A stretch of 64,000 nucleotides of DNA from Natronomonas marina (GTDB lineage Archaea > Halobacteriota > Halobacteria > Halobacteriales > Haloarculaceae): the NCBI RefSeq assembly GCF_024298905.1, contig NZ_CP101154.1, forward strand, positions 620,001 to 684,000, read 5' to 3'. Positions 13,645-27,935 of the stretch are shown piece after piece. Positions within the stretch are counted from its first letter, which is position 1; every line of letters starts with the position of its first letter. Position numbers and translations under genes: made by a program. The notes under the pieces are model-generated. The model saw nothing but the letters and a program-made list of their open reading frames with translations, ran no database searches and was not told where the DNA came from.

Positions 13645-14003
13645 ATCGGGACCCACTCTACCCACCTACAAAGGCGTGGCCGAGGCTCAAATAGACGCTT
13701 GTGTGTCACCCGGTCTCGGGGCCTGACCTGGCGCTTCACTGACGGAGTGGAGCAGGGGCTCCTATCAACGGTCAGCCGGTGGTACCAAACGCCGTGCGGT
13801 GGTCTCGAATAGCCGCGAACGAATCGTCCCGGGCCTTTTGAGTGGCGAAATACGCGCACGAAGATAGTGAAAAGAGCCTAGGCCGAGCTAACAAGCAGTA
13901 TTTTATATATGAAGAGGATTCACCCAAAGTTAATATTCCAAAATATCGGCGTATGAAGCGCTAATACTCCACTTCCGATCTTGTACAGACTATCGTATCC
14001 GGA
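13645..14003. other. Intergenic stretch without a gene
   Basis: No convincing gene. The left part is the promoter side of the lipoprotein gene. Around 13895-13965 it becomes markedly A+T-rich (tattttatatatgaagagg, gttaatattccaaaatatc), marking the switch from core DNA to the lower-G+C island on the right. The AT-rich run could be a promoter or simply the edge of acquired DNA. Confidence 0.5.
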
Positions 14004-14975
14004 CTACCCCTGCATCTGTGTTCCCGTACTGAAACTGGTGAGGTCGTCGATGCGTTCCTCGAGGGCTTCGATCTCCTGGCGGAGTTCGTCGGATTCCGCC
14101 TCGCTACTGGCCGCAAGCCGGTCTTTCAACCCCTGGAGTCGTGACTCTTTGACCTCCTCGTCGACTTCCGCCTTCCGGACGTATTCGCTCTCATCTACCT
14201 CGTACACGTCGGTTTCCGAGAGTTCCGTCACTTCCAGTGCCTCGTTCACCTTCTTCGAATCGACGCTCGTGACGCGCTCACGGTCGATCCCTGCGTCTTC
14301 CAGCGTGGCCAGTACCTCTTCCTCGTCTCTCAGCGATCGATTGCGGCGCGACGTTCGCTGGACCGATCCGTACTGTCCGTGCACTGGTTGGTCGTGGTGG
14401 AGTTTATCGAGTAACACGTCGGCGATGTCCTGCCGGAAGTCGTTCGCGTTCCGTTGGACGTCCGAACAGAGCGTGTAGAGGTTCACCAGCGCATCCGTCT
14501 CCAACGCTGTGAGATCGGAGACGTCCTGACGTTCCAGCGCATCGATGAGGAGGAGCGCATCGGAGTACACGTCGAGCCCATCAGGTTCGACACGGTCGCT
14601 CTCGGCAGCCGCCGGTTCGTCACTCAGGAGTTGCGTATCGGTCGCCTCCTCTTTTTCGATGATAATGTCCTGCTCTTCGTCCACCTCGAATCGTGGATGC
14701 AGGCTCAGTACCGCCGGATACGGGTCGGCATCGGGTGGGAGCCGGTCGAGTTCGAATGTACCGTTCGAGTCCTGGATTCGGCGGTAGAGGGTCTCGAACT
14801 GATCGCGCTGAAGCGGGCGACGCTCTCCAGTATTACCGAACGTCACGACGACGCGGTGTTCCTGTACGTCCGTGACGCGGAACGTATCGTGAGAAAGCGG
14901 TGTGACAAGTTCGGCATCGTCGGGCACCTCGTCAAGTTCCTCAAGCAGCGTGTTCCAGCTGACGCTGAACGGCAT
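14004..14975 (-). CDS. Coiled-coil protein of unknown function (repair-island neighbour)
   Basis: A 323-residue, very acidic soluble protein. Residues 1-75 look like a small beta/alpha domain (LVTPLSHDTFRVTDVQEHRV). Residues 110-215 are mostly helical, and residues 245-315 form a coiled coil (LQGLKDRLAASSEAESDELR). No family is recognised. It is 48 bp downstream of the HhH gene on the same strand, so the two are likely one transcript, divergent from the helicase gene. Its role is unknown; by position it belongs to the nucleic-acid-processing island. Confidence 0.7.
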   Translation of the reverse strand: MPFSVSWNTLLEELDEVPDDAELVTPLSHDTFRVTDVQEHRVVVTFGNTGERRPLQRDQFETLYRRIQDSNGTFELDRLPPDADPYPAVLSLHPRFEVDEEQDIIIEKEEATDTQLLSDEPAAAESDRVEPDGLDVYSDALLLIDALERQDVSDLTALETDALVNLYTLCSDVQRNANDFRQDIADVLLDKLHHDQPVHGQYGSVQRTSRRNRSLRDEEEVLATLEDAGIDRERVTSVDSKKVNEALEVTELSETDVYEVDESEYVRKAEVDEEVKESRLQGLKDRLAASSEAESDELRQEIEALEERIDDLTSFSTGTQMQG

Positions 14976-15023
14976 GAAAACGGGTACGACTGCTTGATTG
15001 AAAACGTTCAGGACCGTCGGCGT

Positions 15024-15716
15024 TCAGTTCTCGAAGAGGTCACTGAACGGACGCAGGTCGCTGGTATCGACGACGAGCGGATCGTCGGCACAGTCGGCCG
15101 CTCGGTCGCCGTGAGCATCCGGGACTGTCCCGTCGAACTGCTCGGCAGCTTCCACTACCTCTGACGCCAAGTCGTCAGTGACGTACGGAATGTCGGTCAG
15201 TTCGGCTTCGGTCGCCGAAGCGACTGCATCCAACGACTCGTATTCCCCGTACAGATTGCCAATCTCTTGCTGCCCGAGACCGTGGATATCCGAGAGCGCC
15301 ACCCAGGAGCGGCGTCGATGGTCCATCTCACGTTCGACCCGTGGCATGGCCCGTTCCAGCCAGTCACGAGCGTCTGGAGCCGTCTCGATCAGTCCTTCGT
15401 CGAACGCTGCTCTGACTCCGAACGCATCCTGTTCGGCTGCGTACTCGATCACCAGTTGGCGTTCGCTGTCCATCGGCCGGTCGATACCGGGGTCGTAGCC
15501 GGCGAGATACGTGAAGATGACTGCGTTCGAGGTTGGTGTCGAGTCAGGCTTCGATCCCGTGAGTGCCTCGAACAGCGCACTCTCCAGCGGGTCGTCCGAT
15601 TGGAATGGCCCCGATAGCGGTTCGAGAAGGCCACGAACCCATCCCGAGGGAAGTTCCAGGGCGAGAAACGGGTCAAGTTCGTCCGCGTACGAAATCGGAG
15701 CAGCCATTACGCTCAC
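15024..15716 (-). CDS. Helix-hairpin-helix protein of unknown function
   Basis: A 230-residue protein. Residues about 140-195 look like tandem HhH motifs as in DNA-repair nucleases and RuvA-like proteins: LSDIHGLGQQEIGNLYGEY, then SLDAVASATEAELTDIPYVTD. The N-terminal 135 residues contain no recognised catalytic site. DNA binding is likely; a nuclease role cannot be claimed. It is head-to-head with the interrupted helicase gene (100 bp between starts) and cotranscribed with the coiled-coil gene downstream. Confidence 0.7.
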   Translation of the reverse strand: MSVMAAPISYADELDPFLALELPSGWVRGLLEPLSGPFQSDDPLESALFEALTGSKPDSTPTSNAVIFTYLAGYDPGIDRPMDSERQLVIEYAAEQDAFGVRAAFDEGLIETAPDARDWLERAMPRVEREMDHRRRSWVALSDIHGLGQQEIGNLYGEYESLDAVASATEAELTDIPYVTDDLASEVVEAAEQFDGTVPDAHGDRAADCADDPLVVDTSDLRPFSDLFEN

Positions 15717-16076
15717 CGGATTGTTGTCCGAGCACCTAAATAAGAACCTCGTTCACCGAGGGCGGTGGATCGAGGACCGTATCTCTATATGCGGGCACGC
15801 AGTATCCACGGGGTAGTGAACGACTTCGTCGAGTGGGTACAGCATCGTGACTACTACCGCGATCAGATCCGGTTCCAGCGGGATATACCCGCCCGAAGTC
15901 CCGTCACTCGGTCCTGTGAGATGGAACCCCAGATCACGGATTATAGATTGAACAAGCGCAATACCACGGCCTTCAGGCCGTGGATACGCGCCGTCAGTCT
16001 GAGTAACTAGCAACGGCATAGCCATCCTTGGATATTCCAAGTATTTAATCCGAGCCATTTCATAAGAATAAACGAG

Positions 16077-17351
16077 ATGGCGACCACTCGGCGTACACAC
16101 GTCTGTCGCATCCAAAACCACTCGCAAGTGGCGGATGCGTTGGACCGACACGGGTGGTCGGCATCCAAATTGTGGAACGTCGCACTATACCACGCCCGGG
16201 AAGTATGGGACGAAACCGGTGAGATTCCCGATGAAGGCGATCTGAAAGACGAACTGAAGACCCACTCCAAATACGACGGACTGCACAGTCAGTCCAGTCA
16301 GAAAGTTCTCGAAGAGCTTTCTGAAGCCTTCAGTTCGTGGTACGGTTCCGACGACAACCGGGACAATCCGCCGGGCTACCGCAAGGAGAACTACTACGAC
16401 GAGGACGGCAACCGCGTCCACGAAGCACACCCACGATCAACAGTCACCTGGAAGCAGAACGGCATCCGACACGATGACAAACACGGCCGCCTCCGCCTCA
16501 GCAAAGGCTCCAACCACAAGGATGGACGCGACTTCATCCTTTGTGAATACGAAGCTCCACCAGAGGTCGAACTAGAAGATGTCCAGCAAGTCCGGGCTGT
16601 CTGGAGCTCGGGTAAACGGCGGTGGGAGCTGCACGTCGTCTGTGAACACGACATCGCACCCGAATCACCGGGCGAGAAGGTCGCCGGTGTTGACCTCGGC
16701 ATCTGCAATCCCGCCGTCGTTGCGTTCCCCGACGATGCCCTGCTGTATCCAGGCAACAGACTGCGAGAAGACAAACACTACTTCCAACGGGAAGAATACC
16801 AGACCGAGGGAGTCCACGGCCCATCGCAGAAAGCACAGTGGGCGCGTGAGAAACTCTCTCGGCGGAAAGACCATTTCCTGCACGCCCTCTCGAAAGACAT
16901 CGTCGAGCGATGCGTTGAACACGATGTTGGCACACTCGTCGTGGGTGATCCAAGTGGTGTAGACGATGATGATTGGGGTCGTCACGGGAACAAGCGATTA
17001 GACAATTGGGCGTACAAGCGTGTAATGAACCTGTTGGACTACAAGGCCCGTGAGCGTGGTATTGAGGTGGAGATGCGAGACGAACGCGGGACGTCCTCGA
17101 AGTGTAGTGTTTGTGGGGACGAAGACGATGAGAGTCGCGTTGAACGTGGGCTGTGGAAGTGCGACCGATGTGGAGTGGTCATTCACGGCGACGTGAACGG
17201 TGCAGACAACATCAGACAGGAAACGCTAACCATGACTCCCCCATTGGGGGATAGTGGTAACGGCTGCTTGGCTCAGCCTCGCGTCATCCACTTCGACCGG
17301 ACTCGCGGATTCCAACCGCGAGATTCCCGTACGGATGCCGCGAAACCCTAA
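16077..17351 (+). CDS. tnpB: TnpB RNA-guided nuclease homologue with an unusual RuvC-II site
   Basis: A 424-residue TnpB. The RuvC-I aspartate is in VAGVDLGICNPAVV, the zinc finger is CSVCGDEDDES ... CDRCG, and the RuvC-III aspartate is in HGDVNGADNI. Where other TnpBs, including the one at 42.6 kb (VAVESLV), have the RuvC-II glutamate, this protein reads LVVGDPSGVDDDDWG, so the position is Gly followed by Asp. It may use a different acid or be weakened. The start ATG follows aataaacgag. The 3' end overlaps the predicted guide-RNA region, as in active TnpB systems. Confidence 0.85.
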   Translation: MATTRRTHVCRIQNHSQVADALDRHGWSASKLWNVALYHAREVWDETGEIPDEGDLKDELKTHSKYDGLHSQSSQKVLEELSEAFSSWYGSDDNRDNPPGYRKENYYDEDGNRVHEAHPRSTVTWKQNGIRHDDKHGRLRLSKGSNHKDGRDFILCEYEAPPEVELEDVQQVRAVWSSGKRRWELHVVCEHDIAPESPGEKVAGVDLGICNPAVVAFPDDALLYPGNRLREDKHYFQREEYQTEGVHGPSQKAQWAREKLSRRKDHFLHALSKDIVERCVEHDVGTLVVGDPSGVDDDDWGRHGNKRLDNWAYKRVMNLLDYKARERGIEVEMRDERGTSSKCSVCGDEDDESRVERGLWKCDRCGVVIHGDVNGADNIRQETLTMTPPLGDSGNGCLAQPRVIHFDRTRGFQPRDSRTDAAKP

Positions 17352-17400
17352 TATCCCAACGCTCGGGATTCCACGGCCTTTAGACCGTGGAGGAAGTCAA
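17230..17400 (+). ncRNA. Putative omega (reRNA) guide RNA at the element right end
   Basis: TnpB elements make an RNA that overlaps the tnpB 3' end, covers the right end and continues into flanking DNA as guide. This stretch is rich in stems (actcccccattgggggat, ggattccaaccgcgagattcc, the terminal ccacggcctttagaccgtgg hairpin) and stops exactly at the element boundary. The guide would be the host sequence starting ctggcggaccgtggc at 17401. Prediction from position and stems only. Confidence 0.35.
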
Positions 17401-19655
17401 CTGGCGGACCGTGGCATCAACGAACTCTACGCACACCAGACCGATGCAATCGAAGCGGTTCGCGACGGACAGAACGTCGTACTCGCGACACCGACAGCGA
17501 GCGGAAAGAGTCTCGCGTACACGATTCCCGCCATCGAACGCGCCCACGACCACGACGGTCGGACGCTGTATATCGGTCCGCAGGTCGCGCTGATCAACGA
17601 CCAGGAAGCGACCCTGTCTGATTTCGCTGCACCGTTCGGCGATCTCTCCGTGACTCAGTACACAGGCTCGCTCTCTTCGAACGAGCGCCAGCAGGCACGT
17701 GACGAAGACCCGGGCATCGTCTTGACGACGCCGGATATGCTCCACTGTGGACTGCTCAGTCACGCGAGTGACATCTGGCGAGCTTTCTTCCATTCTCTGG
17801 AGCTCGTCGTCGTCGACGAAGTCCACGAGTACCGCGGTGTCTTCGGCAGTCACGTCGGTCTCGTCTGCCGTCGGTTGGCGCGAATCTGTGACCGTCTCGG
17901 TGCTGATCCGCAGTTCGTGTGCTGTTCCGCGACGATCGGAAATCCCCGGGAGCACGCAGCGACGATCACCGGCCAACCGACCGACTCGTTCGAACTCGTC
18001 GACGAGGACACCAGTGAAACGGGTCCGACGCACTGGCTGTTCTGGCAACCACCGGAATACGACGAGGGCGATGCACCGGTCGGTGCAGGACAGCGCCGCT
18101 CCCACCACGGGGAAACCATGCGACTGTTCGTCGACCTCGTGATGCAGGGATATCAGACGGTAGCGTTCACGCGCGCGAGGCAGACAGCAGAGCGGTATGC
18201 CACCATCAGCAGCGATACACTCGCAGAGCGCGGGCAGGCCGATATCGCCCAGAGCGTAACTGCGTACCACGCAGGACTGCGCGACGACCGGCGGGCGACA
18301 ATCGAGACTGCCCTGCACTCCGGTGACTGTGCCGGCGTCTGGAGCACGAGCGCGCTGGAACTCGGCGTCGACATCGGCAGCCTCGACGCGGTCCTGTTAG
18401 ACGGGTACCCCGGAACACAGATGGCAACGTTCCAGCGCGCGGGCCGCGCCGGCCGCGGGACCGACCCGAGTCTCGTCGCGCTCGTCGCCAGTGAGGATCA
18501 ACTCGATCAGTACATAATCAAACACTCTCACGAACTGTTCGAGCAGACACCCGAGCGGGCCGTCGCCAATCCCTCGAATCCGCATCTCCTGAAACTGCAT
18601 GCACACGCCGCGGCCATGGAAGGACCACTCCGAACCGCGGACGAGGCGTATTTCGGTCCTACTTTCCCTGACATCGTCAGTGCGCTCACGGACGAGGGCG
18701 AACTGACTCGCCAGCAGACAGACCAGGGACTCGAATGGCGACGCACCGCCAGTGGACGAACGGTGAACCCGTACGAACAGGGGCTCCGAACCATCACTGA
18801 ACGCACGGTCACCCTCCGGGTTCGAGGCGGAGCGACTGACGAACTCGGGGAGTTGCCGCTCGACGCTGCACTGCGGGACGTACATCCGGGCGCTATCTAC
18901 CACCATCAGGGCCAGAACTACGAAGTCCAGTCATTCGACCTGGACCGTGACGTTGCGTGGCTCACCCCGACAGACAGCGACCACCAGACGCGCGTGCAGT
19001 ACGAGGAGTCGATGACCATCGAGGAGGACATCGCCACGAAACCACTGGCGACCCGTGACGACGTCACCGTTCACTTCGCGGACGTGACGCGACGGAAGCA
19101 GGTCACCGGCTTCCAGCGACGCGACCACCGAACTGGTGAGATCATGACCGAGGAGTCACTCGATCTGCCCGAGACGACACTCTCGACCCGTGCACTGTAC
19201 GTGACGCTGCCGATGGGACTGGAAAGCCTGATGCAGACGATGTCCGGGTCGTTCGAGGGTGGCCTCCACGCCGTCCAGCACGCCCTCGTCGCCACGTTCC
19301 CGCTGGTCATCCTCTGTGACCGGCGAGACGTCGGAAGCGTCTCGACGGCCGAACACCCACAGACCGAGACGAGCGCGCTGTTCATATACGACAGTTACCG
19401 CGGTGGCGTCGGACTGGCCCGCAACGGATACGACCACATCGAGGAACTCTTCCAGCACACGTGGGAACTGCTCGCCGATTGTGGCTGTTCGGACGGCTGT
19501 CCGGCGTGTATCCAGTCACCCCATTGCGGTCAGGCGAACGAACCGCTCGACAAGCGCCTCGCGGCGACGCTGACGATGGCGCTGGCCGATCCGAGCCGGC
19601 AGGCCGCTGATTCGACACCGTAATCGAATTCTACGCCCGTGTCGAAAGACAGTAT

Positions 19656-20453
19656 ATGAACGTCGATAGAGATACCATCCGGAGTCGAACCACCGACGCA
19701 GTGTTCGAGCGCGGGGTGAACTACCGTGACGAGGGACGCATTCAGCAACTCGACCGATTCGATGACCTCGTGACCGCGAGCGTCAGCGGCTCAAAACTGT
19801 ACGACGTGACTGTCGAATTCGGCGGACGGAGTATCGACACACAGTGTACCTGTCCGTACGACGGTGGCGGCGACTGCAAGCACGTCGTCGCCGTACTACT
19901 GGATATCGCCGCCAACCCGCCACAGGACGAGAGCGAGCGTGTCGAGGCAGTCATCGACGACGTATCGACTGACGACCTGCGAGGATTCATCCGTGACGCA
20001 CTCGCCGAACACCCGGAGTTGCGCGAGCAGTTTCTCGCACAGTTCGGGGACGATCACAAATCGGTCGAGGAGTACCGCGAGGAAATCGTGCAGTTGTTCG
20101 AGCAACACGCCGACCCGGTCGTGTTCGAAGCCATCGACTTCTCGCAGTTTTTCGAGATCGCCGAGCAGTACCGTGACCGCGATCGGTATCTGGCAGCTGC
20201 GACTGTGTATCGAGCCGTATTCGAGGAGATCGACGAGAAGTACAACTGGATCAACGGTGCCTACGACCACTACGCAAAGACCATCCAGACTGCGCTCGAT
20301 GGCTACGCCGACTGCGTGCTCGCGACCGATCCGACTCCCGAAGAGTTCGACACGTACGCTGGCGTGCTGGAGAAACGGGCGACGACAGAGCCTCGAATCA
20401 ACGACGAGCAGTTCTGGCGGGCACTCGACGATCTGGAGGAGCGATACGAATGA
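19656..20453 (+). CDS. SWIM zinc-finger protein (short paralogue)
   Basis: A 265-residue acidic protein. The SWIM motif CxCx7CxH is at residues 64-76 (CTCPYDGGGDCKH), following the conserved FERGVNYRDEGRIQ lead. The remainder is helical. Residues 1-240 align with the long SWIM protein at 25941-27935, including EDFSQFF-like and YRAVFEEI segments, so the two are paralogues. SWIM domains bind DNA or protein and often accompany helicases. It lies 32 bp after the helicase gene and overlaps the next start (ATGA), forming a tight operon. Confidence 0.88.
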   Translation: MNVDRDTIRSRTTDAVFERGVNYRDEGRIQQLDRFDDLVTASVSGSKLYDVTVEFGGRSIDTQCTCPYDGGGDCKHVVAVLLDIAANPPQDESERVEAVIDDVSTDDLRGFIRDALAEHPELREQFLAQFGDDHKSVEEYREEIVQLFEQHADPVVFEAIDFSQFFEIAEQYRDRDRYLAAATVYRAVFEEIDEKYNWINGAYDHYAKTIQTALDGYADCVLATDPTPEEFDTYAGVLEKRATTEPRINDEQFWRALDDLEERYE

Positions 20454-21226
20454 GCGAACCAACAGACCGATTCGTGATCGAGATCGGAAGCGGAACAGCA
20501 GCACACATCATCGACATGGACGCCGACCAAAGTGAGACGGACTCGCGCTTCTCGTTCGGCCTCACTGGCCCCGGGGAGATGATGTGTAGTCGGGGCAACC
20601 GCTCTCCGAGAGGTCGGCAAGTCCCGTTTGCGGAGTTTGCCGACCACCACGACATCGATAAAACGGGCTTCAAGGGCGATGCCCCGGACGAGATCTGCTC
20701 GTACTGCTGGTCGAACACGCGTGAAGCAGTCGAAAAAGACCAGCAAGCGGATGCTGGTGACATCTCCGAGCAGATCGGAACTGTCGGGTATCGGCTCCGG
20801 TGGAAGCAGAAAGGGCGTGCGCGGGAGGAGTGGTACGATATCGTCGTGAAACCGGAGACGTCGATGGCGGAACTGGACAGGCTCGTGTGTCGAATGTCCA
20901 CGCTCGACGACTTCCACCTCCGGATGTACGGCCTTGAAGACGAATACCTCGATTCCAGTCTCAACGTCCTGCCCGACCACCAGTACGAGGAAGCGGGCGA
21001 CCGGACGTACACGAGAGCGAGCGAGATGACGATGGCGGAGGTCGCCGAACGGGCCCGACTCCGAGAGGGCGACAGACTCAGCCTCGTCTACGACTTAGGG
21101 ACGCCCTCGCATTACTACTGCATCGTCAAGGAGGTCTACGAACCAGACAGACTTGACGAGGTGCTCGACGAAGACGTGATCACGTCGACCGACACGGCCG
21201 CGATCGTCAAGGAGAAACGACCGTGA
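20450..21226 (+). CDS. pRiA4b ORF3-like protein
   Basis: A 258-residue protein starting inside the stop of the SWIM gene (ATGA overlap). Residues about 110-235 resemble the plasmid pRiA4b ORF-3/IS1096 TnpR-like domain: an opening strand WYDIVVKPETSMAELDRL, DDFHLRMYGLEDEY, MTMAEVAERARLREGDRLSLVYDLG followed by SHYYCIVKEVYE. The N-terminal 100 residues contain CSYCW and another Cys (MMCSRG), possibly a metal site. The domain occurs on mobile elements and near repair genes but has no established activity. The 3' end overlaps the next gene by four bases. Confidence 0.65.
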   Translation: MSEPTDRFVIEIGSGTAAHIIDMDADQSETDSRFSFGLTGPGEMMCSRGNRSPRGRQVPFAEFADHHDIDKTGFKGDAPDEICSYCWSNTREAVEKDQQADAGDISEQIGTVGYRLRWKQKGRAREEWYDIVVKPETSMAELDRLVCRMSTLDDFHLRMYGLEDEYLDSSLNVLPDHQYEEAGDRTYTRASEMTMAEVAERARLREGDRLSLVYDLGTPSHYYCIVKEVYEPDRLDEVLDEDVITSTDTAAIVKEKRP

Positions 21227-21542
21227 CACGGGAGACAGACGAAGAGCGGGACAAACGCATTCGGAGAGAGATACTCACCGACGCCTACACCGCCGACGAG
21301 CAAGAAATCAGTTGGTGCTATCACCTCGAACGCGAAATGAACTTTCCGTTCCAGGCGCGGTGTGTCGAGGAGCGAACGATATCACCACTGCGAGAGGGCG
21401 AAGAAGTACCTGTCGTCGGGATGACTGACGAAGTCGTCAGCAGCAGGGAGATGTTCGTCCTCGTGGAATGGAAGGACAGGCAATTCGGTGTCCCGTTGTC
21501 ACAACTCGAAGTACTCGACGTTGATCAGGATACCCGGGAGGC

Positions 21543-22985
21543 CATTCGTTCTAGTTTAGGGGCGGTCAAAGCCGAACTCACCCCGTTCAACCTGCTCACG
21601 TAACCGATTTCTGTGTGGATTTGGATTTCGTGATGCCCACAGCAACAGCTCGTCCAAATCCGGCAGTTCGTAGCCCAACTCAACCATGAGATACAGCTGG
21701 ATCAGATGAGCGTGGCGTTCGACGGCTAGCGAACAGCGACGACGAGGGAGCCGCGACGCCGACTCGTCGGCGTCTGCGGCGGCTTCGACCTCACGCTGTC
21801 TTGCCTCAATCGACCGTAACTCATCCACGATCACACGACTCATCAACAACGAAATCGCCGCCATGATGATCAGTGCCTTGATGATGTAGGCGTCGGTCGT
21901 GTTGATCTCGTCCAAGCCGAACCGCGATTTCAACTCCTTGAACAGCAGTTCGACCTCCCAGCGCGCCCGATAGAGCTGCGCGATATCGGGCGCGCTGTAC
22001 TCCTCACGCGCTAGATTCGTTAGATACAGATGGTACTCTTCGGTCGCCTCGTTGCGCAGCCCGACCAGTCGAAACGTCCGGGTCGCGCTGGCGCCCGACC
22101 CTCGCTTGCGCTCGAACGAGAGCGTGATGCGGACGTCGATTTCCTGTCGCTGCAGGTCGTCAAGGACGGCCTGCAGCGACTCTCCTTCCAGCGGAATGCT
22201 GTTGCCTCGCCACGTTCGCAGTTCCTCGACGATCTCGAAGTTTGCGTTGTCCTTGGCTCGGGAGACGAACCAGCCGCCGTTCTGGTCGATTCGGTCGAAC
22301 AACCAGAAGTCGTAGAAGCCTAAATCAAGCAGGATGAGGGCGTCAGCTACCCACTCGCCGGTGGGTAGCTGACTCCGTTCATGAGTGGTGCCGTCAGTTG
22401 TGCGGAACCGTGTTGGAAGACCTGTCGAGAGTGACTCCGTGAGGTGGAGTTTCAGTTCAGCTTGGTCTTCGCCAGTTGCTGCGTAGATATCAGCGGCGTC
22501 TTGGTACGGCGAAACGATAGTTGCGTCGGCGATGAGGACGTCTCGAAATCGTTCGAGACGTCCGTTGAACTCGGTTCGTCCGGTATCGAGATTCTCGATG
22601 GCGTCATCGAGAATCTCTCGAAGGAGTGCAACGAAGCCCGGTTCGAACCAGTCGTGGAATGCCGCGTAAGAGAGTTCGTCGCAGTCAGCCATCTCGACGT
22701 AGCGGTCGAGAAATGCTTGCAGGGAGCGGTCTGAGCCAGCGGCGAAGCCAAACGAGAGCGTGTAAAACAGCGCAACGATGTCGAACTTCCGCTCACGCTC
22801 AACGAGATTCGTTGCGCGAGCGCGCTCGCGCAACTCATCAGAGGGAAACGCTCTTTGAATTCGGTCAACAACTACCGAGTCCGGTGGAGAGTACACACTT
22901 CCCACCGGGTTCTTCAACCGGGTAGTTGCGACGATATCTAATCAACAGATAGCAACAGGATTCTCCACTAAACTAGAACGGATGG
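21543..22985 (-). mobile_element. IS4-family (ISH8-type) insertion sequence
   Basis: A 1443-bp element with terminal inverted repeats CATYCGTTCTAGTTTAG (17 bp, one mismatch) and a 9-bp target duplication CCGGGAGGC at 21534-21542 and 22986-22994. It carries one intact transposase gene. The perfect duplication and intact transposase suggest a recent insertion. Confidence 0.92.
21556..22917 (-). CDS. IS4-family (ISH8-type) transposase
   Basis: A 453-residue DDE transposase. The first catalytic Asp is in DVLIADATIVSPYQDA, the second in ILLDLGFYDFWLFDRI, and the IS4 YREK signature is intact: YRARWEVELLFKELKS (Tyr-2-Arg-3-Glu-6-Lys). N- and C-terminal helical regions are of normal length for ISH8-type proteins. 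It lies antisense to the gene it interrupts. Confidence 0.92.
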   Translation of the reverse strand: MKNPVGSVYSPPDSVVVDRIQRAFPSDELRERARATNLVERERKFDIVALFYTLSFGFAAGSDRSLQAFLDRYVEMADCDELSYAAFHDWFEPGFVALLREILDDAIENLDTGRTEFNGRLERFRDVLIADATIVSPYQDAADIYAATGEDQAELKLHLTESLSTGLPTRFRTTDGTTHERSQLPTGEWVADALILLDLGFYDFWLFDRIDQNGGWFVSRAKDNANFEIVEELRTWRGNSIPLEGESLQAVLDDLQRQEIDVRITLSFERKRGSGASATRTFRLVGLRNEATEEYHLYLTNLAREEYSAPDIAQLYRARWEVELLFKELKSRFGLDEINTTDAYIIKALIIMAAISLLMSRVIVDELRSIEARQREVEAAADADESASRLPRRRCSLAVERHAHLIQLYLMVELGYELPDLDELLLWASRNPNPHRNRLREQVERGEFGFDRP

Positions 22986-23051
22986 CCGGGAGGCAGTCGA
23001 TGACTGGCACTACTGGAACGGCGACGGCGGCCGTTTGGCTTGAACACCCGA

Positions 23052-24404
23052 TCAGTCGGGCGCTGTTTCGACGGGCGAGGCGTACTCCTCGGCCAGTTCG
23101 ACCACGTCGTAGACGTGCATCCCGGTTTTGAACCACAGCACCCGATCCGCGGCGTCTCCGAAGTCCTCGTCGGAACAGTCCAATCGCTCCGAGACCGCCA
23201 ACACGAAGTTGTCGGCCTCGACCTGCCGGATCTTCGCCAGTTTCGACGCCAGGTACTCCGGTGTCCAGAACCCCACGATTTCCATGATCGCCCGCCGCCC
23301 GTCGGGATGTTCGATGGCGAAATCGGGAATCATAACCTCCGAGCCGAGGTCGAAGACGTCGTCTTCGCGCTGGAGATTCCACTCGGTAGTCGCCCGCTCC
23401 CACTTCCGGGCGAGTGTGCGCTCGACGTCACTATCGAATCGCTGGCCGGTGCTGTAGTGTGAGACTAGCCCATCGGTGTGGTCGAGCGTGAACTGGTTGC
23501 TGTCGCTGGCCGATTTCTCGTCGATAATCTCGGCGCGCATCTCCCACCGGTCGCATAAGGGGAGCGCCGGCAGGAAGTTCGCCATCCGGATGCCGTACTT
23601 CTGTGACTTCCGGAATAGTGAGACTGGCCCGTCGAGTTCCGCCTCGTAGCCCGCTGCCACGTCCGTGCTTGCGACGCGGTTGCCGTCCTCGTCGATGGGG
23701 TAGATCCGGTGCATCAACCCAAACAGTTTCATGTAGCTGAACACTGTTCCGAAGTGGTCCCACACCCGGACGTGCATCGTCGAGGCGTCGTAGAGCACGG
23801 CCTGTGCCAGTGCCAGGTTGTAGCGGGCCAGCAGCCAGTCGACCGTCTGGTCGCGCTGGTCGTACGCCTGCTTGCTATTTCCCGTCAGTTTCGTCGTTGT
23901 CGTCGTGGACTCCTCTCCGTCGCTGTCGTCGCGCACCGACTGGTCGCCGAACCGGACGAGCCGTTTATTGTCCTCCAGATCCGCGTACATCGCCCGATAG
24001 CACTCTTCGAGGGTGATACCCGACTCGTCGGCGACCGCGCTGTAGATTTCCAGTTTCTGCGTGTCTTCGCCGAGCGTTGGCTGGCGAACGATCGGATAGC
24101 GGTCGTTGGCTCGTTCGAACAGTCGCTTTCGGATCTCACGTGGCTCGGCGGCCGCCTGTTGCTCGAACTCACACTCGTCTCTGAGGAGTTTCGCCAGCCC
24201 CTGGACGATCTTGTAGTCGGTATCGGCGACGGTGAGTTCGTCGATCGCATCGTCGAGTTCGCCTTTGGGTTCGCCGAGGTAGTCCTCGAACAGCGCTATC
24301 AGGGTGGCCGCTGTCTCTCGGTACCGCTCGTCGGAGATGTCGATGAACAGGGGGCGAACTTCACCATCGCGTATGTGCGACCGGGCGAGGTCAGCCGTCA
24401 GCAC
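23052..24404 (-). CDS. Bax1 nuclease (DUF790), XPB partner
   Basis: A 450-residue protein of the DUF790 family. In archaea this is Bax1, a flap/bubble endonuclease that binds and stimulates XPB helicase. The N-terminal region (VRPLFIDISDERYRETAATLI) and the conserved WLLARYNLALAQAVLYDAS block fit. The nuclease-fold region is EVMIPDFAIEHPDGRRAIMEIVGFWTPEYLASKL, resembling PD-(D/E)xK with IMEIVGFW. Its start overlaps the XPB gene by 14 bp, so the two are translationally coupled. It is convergent with the ccbP-like pseudogene. Confidence 0.88.
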   Translation of the reverse strand: MLTADLARSHIRDGEVRPLFIDISDERYRETAATLIALFEDYLGEPKGELDDAIDELTVADTDYKIVQGLAKLLRDECEFEQQAAAEPREIRKRLFERANDRYPIVRQPTLGEDTQKLEIYSAVADESGITLEECYRAMYADLEDNKRLVRFGDQSVRDDSDGEESTTTTTKLTGNSKQAYDQRDQTVDWLLARYNLALAQAVLYDASTMHVRVWDHFGTVFSYMKLFGLMHRIYPIDEDGNRVASTDVAAGYEAELDGPVSLFRKSQKYGIRMANFLPALPLCDRWEMRAEIIDEKSASDSNQFTLDHTDGLVSHYSTGQRFDSDVERTLARKWERATTEWNLQREDDVFDLGSEVMIPDFAIEHPDGRRAIMEIVGFWTPEYLASKLAKIRQVEADNFVLAVSERLDCSDEDFGDAADRVLWFKTGMHVYDVVELAEEYASPVETAPD

Positions 24405-25806
24405 TGCTACTCACCCCCTCGCGCCGCCGCTGTGAGACGTACGTCTCCATCGTGTCGGTCGCGATGATCTCGTAGAGCCGCGCTGGCTGGCGGTCGTCAG
24501 TCGGGCGGAGGATGCGGCCGAGTCGTTGGGCATACTGTCGTTTCGATGCACTCCCCGAGAGAATGATGCCGACGTTGGCCGCTGGCACGTTGATGCCCTC
24601 GTCGAGTACCTGTGAGGTGGCGAGCATCGAGTACTCGCCGCTGCGGAACCGTTCGAGAATCTCGGTGCGTTCGTCGGTGTCGGTCTGGTGTGTGATACAT
24701 GGGAGGATGAACTCCCGGGAGATGTCGTAGGCGAAGTCGTTGTTGGCGGTGAAGACGATGACGCGGTCGTCGTGGTGGCGTTTGAGCAGATTGTCGAGCG
24801 TGTCGAGCTTCTTCGTCGCCGTCCGGGCGATACGCTCGGCCCGCTGCTTTGCGATCAGCGCCCGCCGTCCCTGTGGATCGTAGGACGTGCGCTTGAGAAA
24901 TTCCGAGTAGCCCTGTTCCTTCCAGAGGTCGAAGTCGTGACTGTCGACGTAGTCCCGGTAGATTTGGTACTCTTCGTCGTATTCCGTGCGTTCCGCTGTC
25001 GTGAGACCGACGGACATCTGTATGGTTTCGTATTCGCTGAGGAACTCACCAGCAAGCTCGTCGACTGCTTCTTCGTAGACGACCGGCCCCATGCGGTCTT
25101 CGAGTAGTGCCTCCCGTCCGTCGGCACGCTCGTAGGTCGCCGTCAGACCGAGGCGATAGGGTGCGAGCGTCATCTCGGGGATCTGGAGATAGGTTTCGGC
25201 CGCCAGGTGGTGGGTTTCGTCGGTGACGAGCAGGCCGAACCGGTCGCCGTACTCGTCAATATACCGATAGGCGCTGTCGTAGGTCGTAACTGTGAGCGCG
25301 CCAATCTCGTGACTCCCGCCACCGAGAACGCCGACCTCGTCGGTGAGTTGCTCGCCGAACGCGTTGGTGAGCGTGGCGTGCCACTGGTTCATCAGGTCGA
25401 TCGTCGGGGTGACGACGAGCGCGCTGACGCCGGCGTCAGCAATCGCCTGCAACCCGAGGAAGGTCTTCCCGCTGCCGGTCGGGAGGACGACCGTGCCCTG
25501 TCGGTCGTGCGTACGCCACGAGTCGAGTGCGGCCTGCTGATACTCTCGCGGTTCGATCTGGAGCGCCGGCGTCAGAGCGAGATCCGGGTATGCTCTGGCT
25601 TCGTCTTCGACACCATCGTGGCTGAATGCGCTGTCGAGGGTGGCCTGGCCATCGCCGTCGCTCCACTGTCCGGCCCACTCTAGGAGTGCCCGGTATCGAT
25701 AGGCTTGAACGCGGTACGTATCGACGCGATCGTCCCACTCCGCGTAGGGCACTGTCTCGGGTGCATTGTGGAGCAAGAGCGTCCCATCGTCGAATTCGAT
25801 CCGCAT
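24391..25806 (-). CDS. XPB-type superfamily 2 DNA helicase
   Basis: A 471-residue archaeal XPB/Rad25-like helicase. Motifs: VLPTGSGKTFLG (Walker A), LLVTDETHHLAA (DETH box), LGLTATYERADGRE, and LATSQVLDEGINVP plus AQRLGRILRP in the second RecA domain. With Bax1 it forms a helicase-nuclease pair implicated in nucleotide excision repair. I start at MRIEFDDGTLLL (25806), the usual N-terminus; a longer frame up to 25935 adds 43 residues that are basic and unlike haloarchaeal protein. It is divergent from the long SWIM gene, 134 bp apart. Confidence 0.92.
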   Translation of the reverse strand: MRIEFDDGTLLLHNAPETVPYAEWDDRVDTYRVQAYRYRALLEWAGQWSDGDGQATLDSAFSHDGVEDEARAYPDLALTPALQIEPREYQQAALDSWRTHDRQGTVVLPTGSGKTFLGLQAIADAGVSALVVTPTIDLMNQWHATLTNAFGEQLTDEVGVLGGGSHEIGALTVTTYDSAYRYIDEYGDRFGLLVTDETHHLAAETYLQIPEMTLAPYRLGLTATYERADGREALLEDRMGPVVYEEAVDELAGEFLSEYETIQMSVGLTTAERTEYDEEYQIYRDYVDSHDFDLWKEQGYSEFLKRTSYDPQGRRALIAKQRAERIARTATKKLDTLDNLLKRHHDDRVIVFTANNDFAYDISREFILPCITHQTDTDERTEILERFRSGEYSMLATSQVLDEGINVPAANVGIILSGSASKRQYAQRLGRILRPTDDRQPARLYEIIATDTMETYVSQRRREGVSSSADG

Positions 25807-25940
25807 TCGGTACCTGAATCCACGAGCGAAGCACGATTCAATCTGTCGGGATTTCCGTCGAGAGACATACCGCCTGTCATCGACCAGTGACAGTGCAGCG
25901 TCAGGTTTTCGGTCGGTACCACAGTAGGCATGCACAAAGG

Positions 25941-27935
25941 ATGGACTACCCGACCCGCGAAGACATCCGGTCTCTCTGTACCGAACAGTCTTTCGAACGC
26001 GGTGTCAACTATTACCACCAGGATCGGGTGCAGGAACTGGAGGTCGACGGTGACGAGATCAGAGCTACTGTTCGCGGATCCAGCTACTACGACGTCGCTA
26101 TCGACATCGTGGACGATACGGTCCAGTCTCATTGCAATTGTCCGTACGACTACACAGGTGACTGCAAACACATCGTCGCGGTCCTGCTCGCTGTCGACGA
26201 CCGAGACACCAAGAGGGTGAACGACACGGATCCCGAACGAAATGAAACAGTGCCTGAAACGGTCGACATCGAATCACTGGTTGAGCAGACGACCGCCGAG
26301 GACCTCCGGGCGTTTCTGTTTGACATCATTGCCGACGATCAAGATATCCGTGACCGCTTCGTAGCGTTCGTCGGTGAGGACACAGGCAAGACAATCTACG
26401 ACTACAAACAGGAAATCGATCGACTGTTCGACGATGCCGTCAGCCGCCGGAGAATGGTCGAACACGACACGTACATCGACTTCTCGCAATACACCGACCT
26501 CGCGGAAACGCATCGAGAGCGGGGCCACGTCGATACGGTGACGGATATCTACCGGGCGATTTCCGAGGCGATACGTGAGAATCTGGACCGGGTCGACGAC
26601 AGCGGGGGGTACTACGGCCGCGAGTTGGAACGCGCTATCGAGTCGTATGCAGAGACGGTCGCAGAACAGGACCTCGACCACGAGCGAAAGCGGCCGTACA
26701 TCCAGTATCTCTGTGAGGAGTTCGTCGAGGCAGACTACGGGTTCGCCAGCGACTACTACGACGACGCACTCCGAACGCTCTGCACGACGGACGAAGACCT
26801 CGAATACTGGCTGGAACAACTCGACACACACGTCTCCGGTGTCACACTCGACGCAGTGCTCTCGGGTGACCCCTCCTCGGAAGCGGACGACCGACGCGAT
26901 CAGAGTGCGGACAGCGTTGATACATCTGACGGACCAGCGAGAGCCGACGAGTTCACAAGCCATTCCGAGCGCACGGACGACGTTCTCTACGTATCCGATT
27001 TCACCGACGGTCCGCTCAGAACCGACGATTTCACCGGCGGAACGCTCGATGTCGAACACTTGGCCGTCGGGACACTGAAATTCGAATACTTCGTCGGTGA
27101 CGCTTTCGAGGAGTTACGCGTCGATGAACAGACGACCGTCGAGAAACACACCGCAAGCGTCGAACCGACCGAGTCAGGGACAGCCGACACAAACACCTCT
27201 TCGTCACTGGAAAAACGGCGGCTGTTCTCGACGTACATCTACGTCCTCGAAGAACTCGGTGACGAAGACGCCCTCTCGAAACTCTACGAGGAGATCTACC
27301 TCGAAAGCGACCGTTTCTGCAAGGAGTACGCTCAACGGCTGATCGACGAGGGCAACGAAAGCCGGGCGATCGAAGTGATCGAAGACGGGATCCATACCTT
27401 CCGGTCACCCCGTAACCTTCGCTGGCTCGCCGCCGATCTCTACGAAGACCGGGATATGGACGAGTACCGTGACACGCTGAAACAGTTGTTTCTCGATCAC
27501 ACGGAGTGGGCGGCGTACGACGATCTGAAAGCGGTCTGTGACGATCAAGATTGGCAGTCGATCTACGAAGAATTCGAACGATACTTCGAGAGAGACGACC
27601 GAAAAGACCTCGTCTCGCTCTACGTCCACGACGACGACCTCGAAAAAGCGTTTGCCGAACTGAAAGACAGTGCGGACCTCTCGTCGGTTCGCCGGTATCG
27701 AGATCCGGTCGCAACCACTGCTCCGGTCGAATACTTCGAGCTCTATCGAGAGCTGCTCGTCCCGTTTGCCGCTGGCGACACCGGCCGACGCCACTACCGA
27801 GAAATCGCCGACCACCTCGAAGAGATGCAAGGACTGGTCCCCGAAGCGCGGTTCAAGGAGTTCGTCGATTTCCTGAAGGACAAACACTCGAACCGGCCAG
27901 CGTTCCTGGACGAACTGGAGAAAGCCGAGTTCTGA
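25941..27935 (+). CDS. SWIM zinc-finger protein with decapeptide repeats (long paralogue)
   Basis: A 664-residue protein starting MDYPTREDIRSLC after aaagg. SWIM motif at residues 65-77 (CNCPYDYTGDCKH). Residues 1-240 match the short SWIM protein. Around residues 350-395 is a run of degenerate 10-residue repeats: VSDFTDGPLR, TDDFTGGTLD, VEHLAVGTLK, FEYFVGDAFE. The last 250 residues are helical, TPR-like (RAIEVIEDGIHTF, HTEWAAYDDLKAVCDD), suggesting a protein-interaction scaffold. It is divergent from XPB-Bax1 and probably shares their promoter region. Confidence 0.88.
   Translation: MDYPTREDIRSLCTEQSFERGVNYYHQDRVQELEVDGDEIRATVRGSSYYDVAIDIVDDTVQSHCNCPYDYTGDCKHIVAVLLAVDDRDTKRVNDTDPERNETVPETVDIESLVEQTTAEDLRAFLFDIIADDQDIRDRFVAFVGEDTGKTIYDYKQEIDRLFDDAVSRRRMVEHDTYIDFSQYTDLAETHRERGHVDTVTDIYRAISEAIRENLDRVDDSGGYYGRELERAIESYAETVAEQDLDHERKRPYIQYLCEEFVEADYGFASDYYDDALRTLCTTDEDLEYWLEQLDTHVSGVTLDAVLSGDPSSEADDRRDQSADSVDTSDGPARADEFTSHSERTDDVLYVSDFTDGPLRTDDFTGGTLDVEHLAVGTLKFEYFVGDAFEELRVDEQTTVEKHTASVEPTESGTADTNTSSSLEKRRLFSTYIYVLEELGDEDALSKLYEEIYLESDRFCKEYAQRLIDEGNESRAIEVIEDGIHTFRSPRNLRWLAADLYEDRDMDEYRDTLKQLFLDHTEWAAYDDLKAVCDDQDWQSIYEEFERYFERDDRKDLVSLYVHDDDLEKAFAELKDSADLSSVRRYRDPVATTAPVEYFELYRELLVPFAAGDTGRRHYREIADHLEEMQGLVPEARFKEFVDFLKDKHSNRPAFLDELEKAEF

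What the first reader, a model, noticed from the sequence alone, without database searches (positions are those of the whole stretch)
15816..19623. MrfA-like helicase split by a TnpB element; empty site can be rebuilt exactly
The 43 N-terminal codons (15816-15944) and 740 downstream codons (from 17401) rejoin in frame at ...TDY/LADRGI with the helix register of related helicases. The right end closes in TCAA exactly at the codon boundary. The predicted TnpB guide would be the helicase's own sequence starting ctggcggaccgtggc, so TnpB could cut an uninterrupted allele and drive gene conversion.
Basis: partly seen in the sequence, partly recalled or inferred. Interest (0 to 1): 0.65.

Follow-up and report, generated by a model that had tools for sequence, protein, structure and literature searches.

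The report
TnpB element inserted in helicase gene
A 1.46-kb jumping gene that carries an RNA-guided DNA cutter (TnpB) sits inside a DNA-helicase gene of a salt-loving archaeon; the exact pre-insertion site can be read from uninterrupted relatives, and the event is a clean but ordinary example of a well-known kind of mobile element.

Summary
A 1,456-bp tnpB-only IS200/IS605-type element (15945-17400) follows the motif TTAT (15941-15944) and splits a YprA/MrfA-family helicase gene (15816-15944 + 17401-19623). Eighteen other copies have TTAT at the same left border in unrelated flanks, and related copies end in the same ...GTCAA. Seven uninterrupted close homologues (80-92% nt identity) and ten more distant ones align across the join without a gap. 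TnpB lacks the canonical RuvC-II Glu (Gly290) but has the known relocated Glu (Glu336) with Asp206 and Asp372, so it may be active. The gene-conversion drive is plausible and precedented, but not shown. No sequenced intact allele has the TTAT motif, so only a same-species empty allele would be a target, and none is held. The helicase remnant shows no decay (740 codons without a stop, dN/dS about 0.1), so the insertion is probably recent. New member of a known kind; low interest.

The parts
15816..15944 (+). N-terminal 43 codons of the YprA/MrfA-like helicase gene (GTG start, conserved in relatives), ending in the TTAT motif
   Evidence: ungapped alignment with intact homologues
15941..15944 (+). 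TTAT, predicted target/transposon-adjacent motif (TAM), host side of the left border
   Evidence: present before base 1 of 18 other elements with unrelated flanks
15945..17400 (+). tnpB-only IS200/IS605-type element, 1456 bp
   Evidence: both borders shared by independent copies and by the empty sites
15964..15983 (+). left-end subterminal hairpin CCACGGCCTTCAGGCCGTGG
   Evidence: sequence; conserved place in related left ends
16077..17351 (+). tnpB, 424 aa, TnpB endonuclease; Asp206, Glu336 (alternative RuvC-II Glu), Asp372; canonical Glu position is Gly290
   Evidence: NF040570 and Pfam PF07282/PF01385; alignments; AF2 model matches Cas12f/TnpB
17223..17400 (+). omega-RNA scaffold (sense overlapping transcript, Rfam RF02656 sot0042 match at 17223-17391)
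   Evidence: cmscan E 8.6e-13, below the curated score; covariation in 30 right ends
17268..17273 (+). 5' side of omega-RNA pseudoknot (TTGGCT), pairs with 17395-17400
   Evidence: 179 of 180 cells paired, 12 compensatory cells, 0/500 shuffles (coordinates)
17371..17390 (+). right-end terminal hairpin CCACGGCCTTTAGACCGTGG
   Evidence: compensatory changes in 6 of 8 pairs
17395..17400 (+). 3' side of pseudoknot AGTCAA, last six bases of the element
17401..17420 (+). predicted guide segment, helicase codons CTGGCGGACCGTGGCATCAA
   Evidence: inferred from the element border and pseudoknot; exact 3' limit not determined
17401..19623 (+). remaining 740 codons of the helicase (DEAD, Helicase_C, MZB) with stop
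   Evidence: Pfam; dN/dS about 0.1 and no stops
17335..17400 (+). 22 in-frame codons of the element, beginning ATG, that run into the helicase frame (possible chance fusion start)
   Evidence: sequence only

Best explanation
This is a tnpB-only (IS1341-type) element of the IS200/IS605 family that inserted directly 3' of a TTAT in codons 42-43 of a YprA/MrfA-family helicase gene, without target duplication. Movement was presumably single-stranded 'peel and paste' by a Y1 transposase acting in trans (inferred; one Y1 gene is present in the genome). TnpB and its omega-RNA, which overlaps the 3' part of tnpB, form a ribonucleoprotein whose guide is the first bases of helicase sequence after 17400 (inferred from the anatomy). 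Insertion separates the TTAT from the guide match, so the occupied locus is protected. An empty allele on another chromosome copy, or one restored by excision, would carry TTAT plus a perfect match; it could be cut there and repaired from the occupied copy, which would keep the element in place (inferred; known for other TnpB elements). The helicase loses its first 43 residues, among them the N-terminal region described for this family, so it is probably impaired. Paralogues remain in the genome and the insertion looks recent.
For: Exact borders in independent copies. Seven close intact alleles and ten distant ones in register. TnpB family match and fold match to Cas12f, ISDra2 TnpB and Fanzor2. 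Asp206 and Glu336 invariant and Asp372 in at least 90% of 26 aligned proteins; ExxxxxxCxxC is the published alternative-glutamate signature (PMC10711439). Rfam sot0042. Covarying pseudoknot and hairpins. One Y1 transposase against 37 TnpB C-terminal domains. No other TTAT-plus-guide site in the genome. TnpB gene drive of an IS200/605 element in plasmids is experimentally reported (PMC11870625). Intermolecular gene conversion in a polyploid haloarchaeon is reported (PMC8223754, PMC11276520).
Against: No expression, small-RNA or cleavage data for this locus. No empty allele of the same species is held, and the close relatives lack the TTAT. The canonical RuvC-II Glu is absent, and the AF2 model is only moderate (mean pLDDT 68), without coordinates to measure the active site. 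Whether the single Y1 transposase acts on these ends was not tested.
Confidence: 0.9

Rival explanations
1. TnpB here is a nuclease-dead relative used for RNA-guided binding or repression (TldR-like), because the canonical RuvC-II Glu is replaced by Gly290.
For: Gly or Ser at the canonical position in the own-genome copies compared.
Against: Glu336 at the published alternative position is invariant, with Asp206 also invariant and Asp372 in at least 90%. Element ends and omega-RNA are maintained and many copies with new flanks exist, as for a moving element and not a domesticated regulator.
Confidence: 0.08
2. The helicase is not really disrupted: it is expressed from within the element as a fusion beginning at ATG 17335, with the omega-RNA and the helicase mRNA sharing a transcript.
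For: The helicase frame is open from 17254 through the right end, with ATG at 17335. All helicase domains found by Pfam lie downstream of the join. No decay in 740 codons and no excess amino-acid change on this lineage.
Against: The 43 lost residues hold the N-terminal region common to YprA-family helicases (PMC12458937). The in-frame ATG is not conserved among related right ends. Lack of decay is equally explained by a recent insertion.
Confidence: 0.15
3. The two helicase pieces are unrelated to the element and the gene was always split, or the borders lie elsewhere.
For: None found.
Against: Seventeen uninterrupted homologues in register, and borders fixed by independent copies.
Confidence: 0.01

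Closest known systems
Haloarchaeal IS200/IS605 tnpB elements with sense overlapping transcripts (Halobacterium salinarum sotRNAs = omega-RNAs; PMC12558985, Rfam RF02656)
   Different: different genus and element; expression not tested here; score below Rfam's curated threshold
ISDra2 TnpB (Deinococcus radiodurans), RNA-guided endonuclease
   Same: fold, guide taken from the right flank, fixed motif left of the element
   Different: TTAT instead of the ISDra2 motif (from memory TTGAT); RuvC-II Glu relocated
Alternative-glutamate (Ealt) TnpBs and Fanzors (PMC10711439)
   Same: ExxxxxxCxxC placement of the RuvC-II Glu
   Different: RuvC-I is DLG, not the DPG of Fanzors and pro-Fanzors; IS605-type ends, not IS607
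MrfA / YprA-family helicases
   Same: DEAD, Helicase_C and MZB domains, best NCBIfam profile TIGR03817
   Different: below the TIGR03817 cut-off; no MrfB-like exonuclease domain among the neighbouring genes scanned; neighbours are SWIM and XPB/DUF790 proteins

Membership tests
IS200/IS605 family (tnpB-only, IS1341-type) | tnpB gene of the TnpB family | tested here: met
   NF040570 192.5 bits, cut-off 100; PF07282 and PF01385 above cut-off
IS200/IS605 family (tnpB-only, IS1341-type) | subterminal hairpins near both ends, no terminal inverted repeats | tested here: met
   15964-15983 and 17371-17390
IS200/IS605 family (tnpB-only, IS1341-type) | insertion 3' of a fixed short motif without target duplication | tested here: met
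   TTAT at this and 18 other copies; empty sites show no duplication
IS200/IS605 family (tnpB-only, IS1341-type) | mobilisation by a Y1 (TnpA) transposase | tested here: inconclusive
   none in the element; one Y1 gene elsewhere in the genome, next to another TnpB; action on these ends not testable
TnpB RNA-guided endonuclease | complete RuvC acidic triad | tested here: met
   Asp206, Glu336 (alternative position), Asp372; canonical Glu position is Gly290
TnpB RNA-guided endonuclease | omega-RNA scaffold ending at the element border, guide from the flank | tested here: met
   as anatomy only: sot0042 match, covarying pseudoknot with the last six bases
TnpB RNA-guided endonuclease | motif- and guide-dependent DNA cleavage | not testable with these tools
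   needs an experiment
YprA/MrfA-family helicase | SF2 helicase core with C-terminal MZB (DUF1998) domain | tested here: met
   Pfam DEAD, Helicase_C, MZB above cut-off
MrfAB repair pair | adjacent MrfB-type 3'-5' exonuclease gene | tested here: not met
   no exonuclease domain in the neighbouring genes scanned; so filed as YprA-family helicase, not as MrfAB
Fanzor / pro-Fanzor | DPG motif in RuvC-I together with alternative Glu | tested here: not met
   DLG at 206-208

The most novel reading that the evidence does not exclude
One transcript that starts inside the element serves both as omega-RNA (guide at 17401) and as mRNA for an element-fused helicase, so that the element both guards its site and keeps or alters expression of the gene it interrupts.
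Probability: 0.06. Interest if true: 0.55.

Novelty: new member of a known kind. Interest (0 to 1): 0.25.

Why it matters
It gives a base-exact occupied site with its empty counterparts, a motif (TTAT), a guide and an omega-RNA model for a haloarchaeal TnpB with a relocated catalytic glutamate. In a group where a model species is polyploid with strong intermolecular gene conversion, that is a convenient test case for chromosomal TnpB-driven retention. The kind of element and the proposed mechanism are already known.

Tried and rejected
(1) A left border after ...TTGAAC (nine bases further right): rejected, because it would leave three extra codons that no relative has, and related elements are conserved up to TTAT. 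(2) An empty allele by exact junction search in genome contigs: none; one genome per species is held, and records very near the window may be left out. (3) Dead-nuclease reading from the missing canonical Glu: set aside after finding the alternative Glu. (5) Defence-system membership of the helicase: PADLOC gives only generic helicase matches; not assigned.

Full report
WHERE IT IS. The window is bases 620001-684000 of contig 1 of a 3.99-Mb, two-contig genome. Its genus contains a genome whose contig matches Natronomonas aquatica F2-12 in length (84,628 bases), so the host is a Natronomonas-like haloarchaeon.

THE OBSERVATION. GTG at 15816 opens 43 codons that end ...ACG GAT TAT (15944); the frame resumes at CTG 17401 and runs 740 codons to the stop at 19621-19623. 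Between them lies tnpB (16077-17351). Joining the flanks gives a continuous gene. The nearest gene in the genus (N. aquatica, 88% amino acid identity) aligns across the join without a gap at DNA level. A scan of named genomes found seven intact close homologues: Halapricum hydrolyticum (92% nt), Salinibaculum, Halorubrum alkaliphilum, Halorubrum sp., Haloarcula vallismortis, a MAG and N. aquatica. All are in register over the 43 codons and across the join. Nine genus genes at 54-57% identity and an intact 54% paralogue in the same genome are also ungapped over the first 75 residues. A second, more distant paralogue (40%) lies on the small contig.

BORDERS FROM THE ELEMENT'S SIDE. The borders do not depend on the helicase. 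Eight other copies in the same genome with unrelated flanks are collinear with the right end up to the base corresponding to 17400 and end GTCAA; a further one ends GTCAC. A search of 146 genomes of the family gave near copies at up to 86% identity. Eighteen other left ends (17 in the family, one in the same genome) carry TTAT directly before the first element base in otherwise unrelated sequence; in L081 this requires a 3-bp deletion in the element. More distant own-genome copies have TTAC in the same place. The element is therefore 15945-17400, 1456 bp, with no target duplication.

WHAT IT ENCODES. The protein matches the guided_TnpB model (192.5 bits, cut-off 100) and Pfam OrfB_IS605 and Cas12f1-like_TNB. 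The AF2 model (mean pLDDT 68, pTM 0.55) finds Cas12f, ISDra2 TnpB, ISFba1 TnpB and mimivirus Fanzor2 structures. RuvC Asp206 (GVDLGI) and Asp372 are present. The usual RuvC-II glutamate is not: the aligned residue is Gly290, and Gly or Ser in the other own-genome copies. Glu336, with six residues between it and the first CxxC, fits the published alternative-glutamate signature ExxxxxxCxxC (PMC10711439) and is invariant in an alignment of 26 proteins. The enzyme is therefore probably active, although this was not measured and no coordinates were available for distances.

THE GUIDE RNA. Rfam's sot0042 family, the haloarchaeal sense overlapping RNA now known as omega-RNA (PMC12558985), matches 17223-17391 over its full length at E 8.6e-13, below the curated score. 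On 30 right ends the consensus structure has 98.3% paired cells and 86 compensatory cells (shuffled mean 24, 0/500 shuffles reach it). [quoted passage not shown] This fixes the scaffold end at 17400 and hence the guide start at 17401. The guide-start inference is structural; no RNA data were available.

HOW IT MOST LIKELY WORKS. Shown: insertion next to TTAT, no duplication, intact tnpB, conserved omega-RNA, guide-side flank equal to helicase codons. Inferred: transposition by a Y1 transposase in trans. The genome has one Y1 gene, beside a different TnpB, against 37 TnpB C-terminal domains. Also inferred: cutting of empty alleles and repair from the occupied copy. A TnpB-dependent gene drive of IS200/605 elements in plasmids has been shown experimentally (PMC11870625), and strong intermolecular gene conversion is known in polyploid Haloferax (PMC8223754, PMC11276520). 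At the occupied locus the guide match is preceded by TCAA instead of TTAT, and no other site with TTAT and the guide's first 16 bases within 3 mismatches has the TTAT, so the host is not expected to be cut elsewhere. The intact relatives have CCAC, CCTG, CTAC, ACGG or ACAA in place of TTAT and several mismatches in the guide region. Homing into them is not expected; only a same-species empty allele would be a target, and none is held.

THE HELICASE. It is a YprA/MrfA-family SF2 helicase (DEAD, Helicase_C, MZB). The lost 43 residues include the N-terminal region that this family inserts into RecA2 (PMC12458937), so function is probably impaired. The remaining 740 codons have no stop and dN/dS about 0.1 against seven relatives. 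Lineage-specific changes show no excess of amino-acid changes in the window lineage (9 N: 15 S against 13 N: 12 S in Halapricum). That means a recent insertion or retained function through another start; an in-frame ATG at 17335 inside the element exists, but looks accidental. Its neighbours are SWIM proteins and an XPB-like helicase with a DUF790 protein, a repair-like neighbourhood.

VERDICT. It is a clean, ordinary instance of a known kind of element.

Noticed in passing
window 21542-22985: A second insertion sequence (DDE_Tnp_1 transposase 21556-22917, inverted ends CCATTCGTTCTAG...CTAGAACGGATGG) with an 8-bp duplication CCGGGAGG; Halapricum hydrolyticum (L106) has the uninterrupted site. 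It cuts the CcbP-domain gene 21223-21603.
   Followed up: partly
window 13994-25935: Gene set shared in part with Halapricum, Halorubrum, Haloarcula, Salinibaculum and N. aquatica, with a patchy distribution (closest helicase lies in another genus): YprA-like helicase, SWIM protein, CcbP-domain protein, and further on DUF790 (Bax1-type) and XPB-like helicase; possibly a mobile repair cassette.
   Followed up: partly
window 15024-15716: Helix-hairpin-helix protein gene upstream of the helicase, aligned here with Halorubrum alkaliphilum (L108) but absent or replaced in N. aquatica and Halapricum.
   Followed up: no
G000 contigs 1 and 2, 37 places: 37 TnpB C-terminal domains but only one Y1 TnpA in the genome, including two near-identical TnpB copies (L061, L068) at different sites: a heavy tnpB-only load.
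   Followed up: partly
L062 (G000:C1 about 1,250,000), L064 (1,518,600), L060 (728,000): Partial or decayed sister copies of this element: L062 has the TTAT left end and only the N-terminal half of tnpB similar, L064 keeps mainly the right end, L060 the C-terminal half.
   Followed up: no
window 25887-27935 and 19656-20453: Two SWIM zinc-finger proteins in the same neighbourhood; in N. aquatica the sequence similarity jumps from the start of the first to the end of the second, as if recombined or deleted between them.
   Followed up: no
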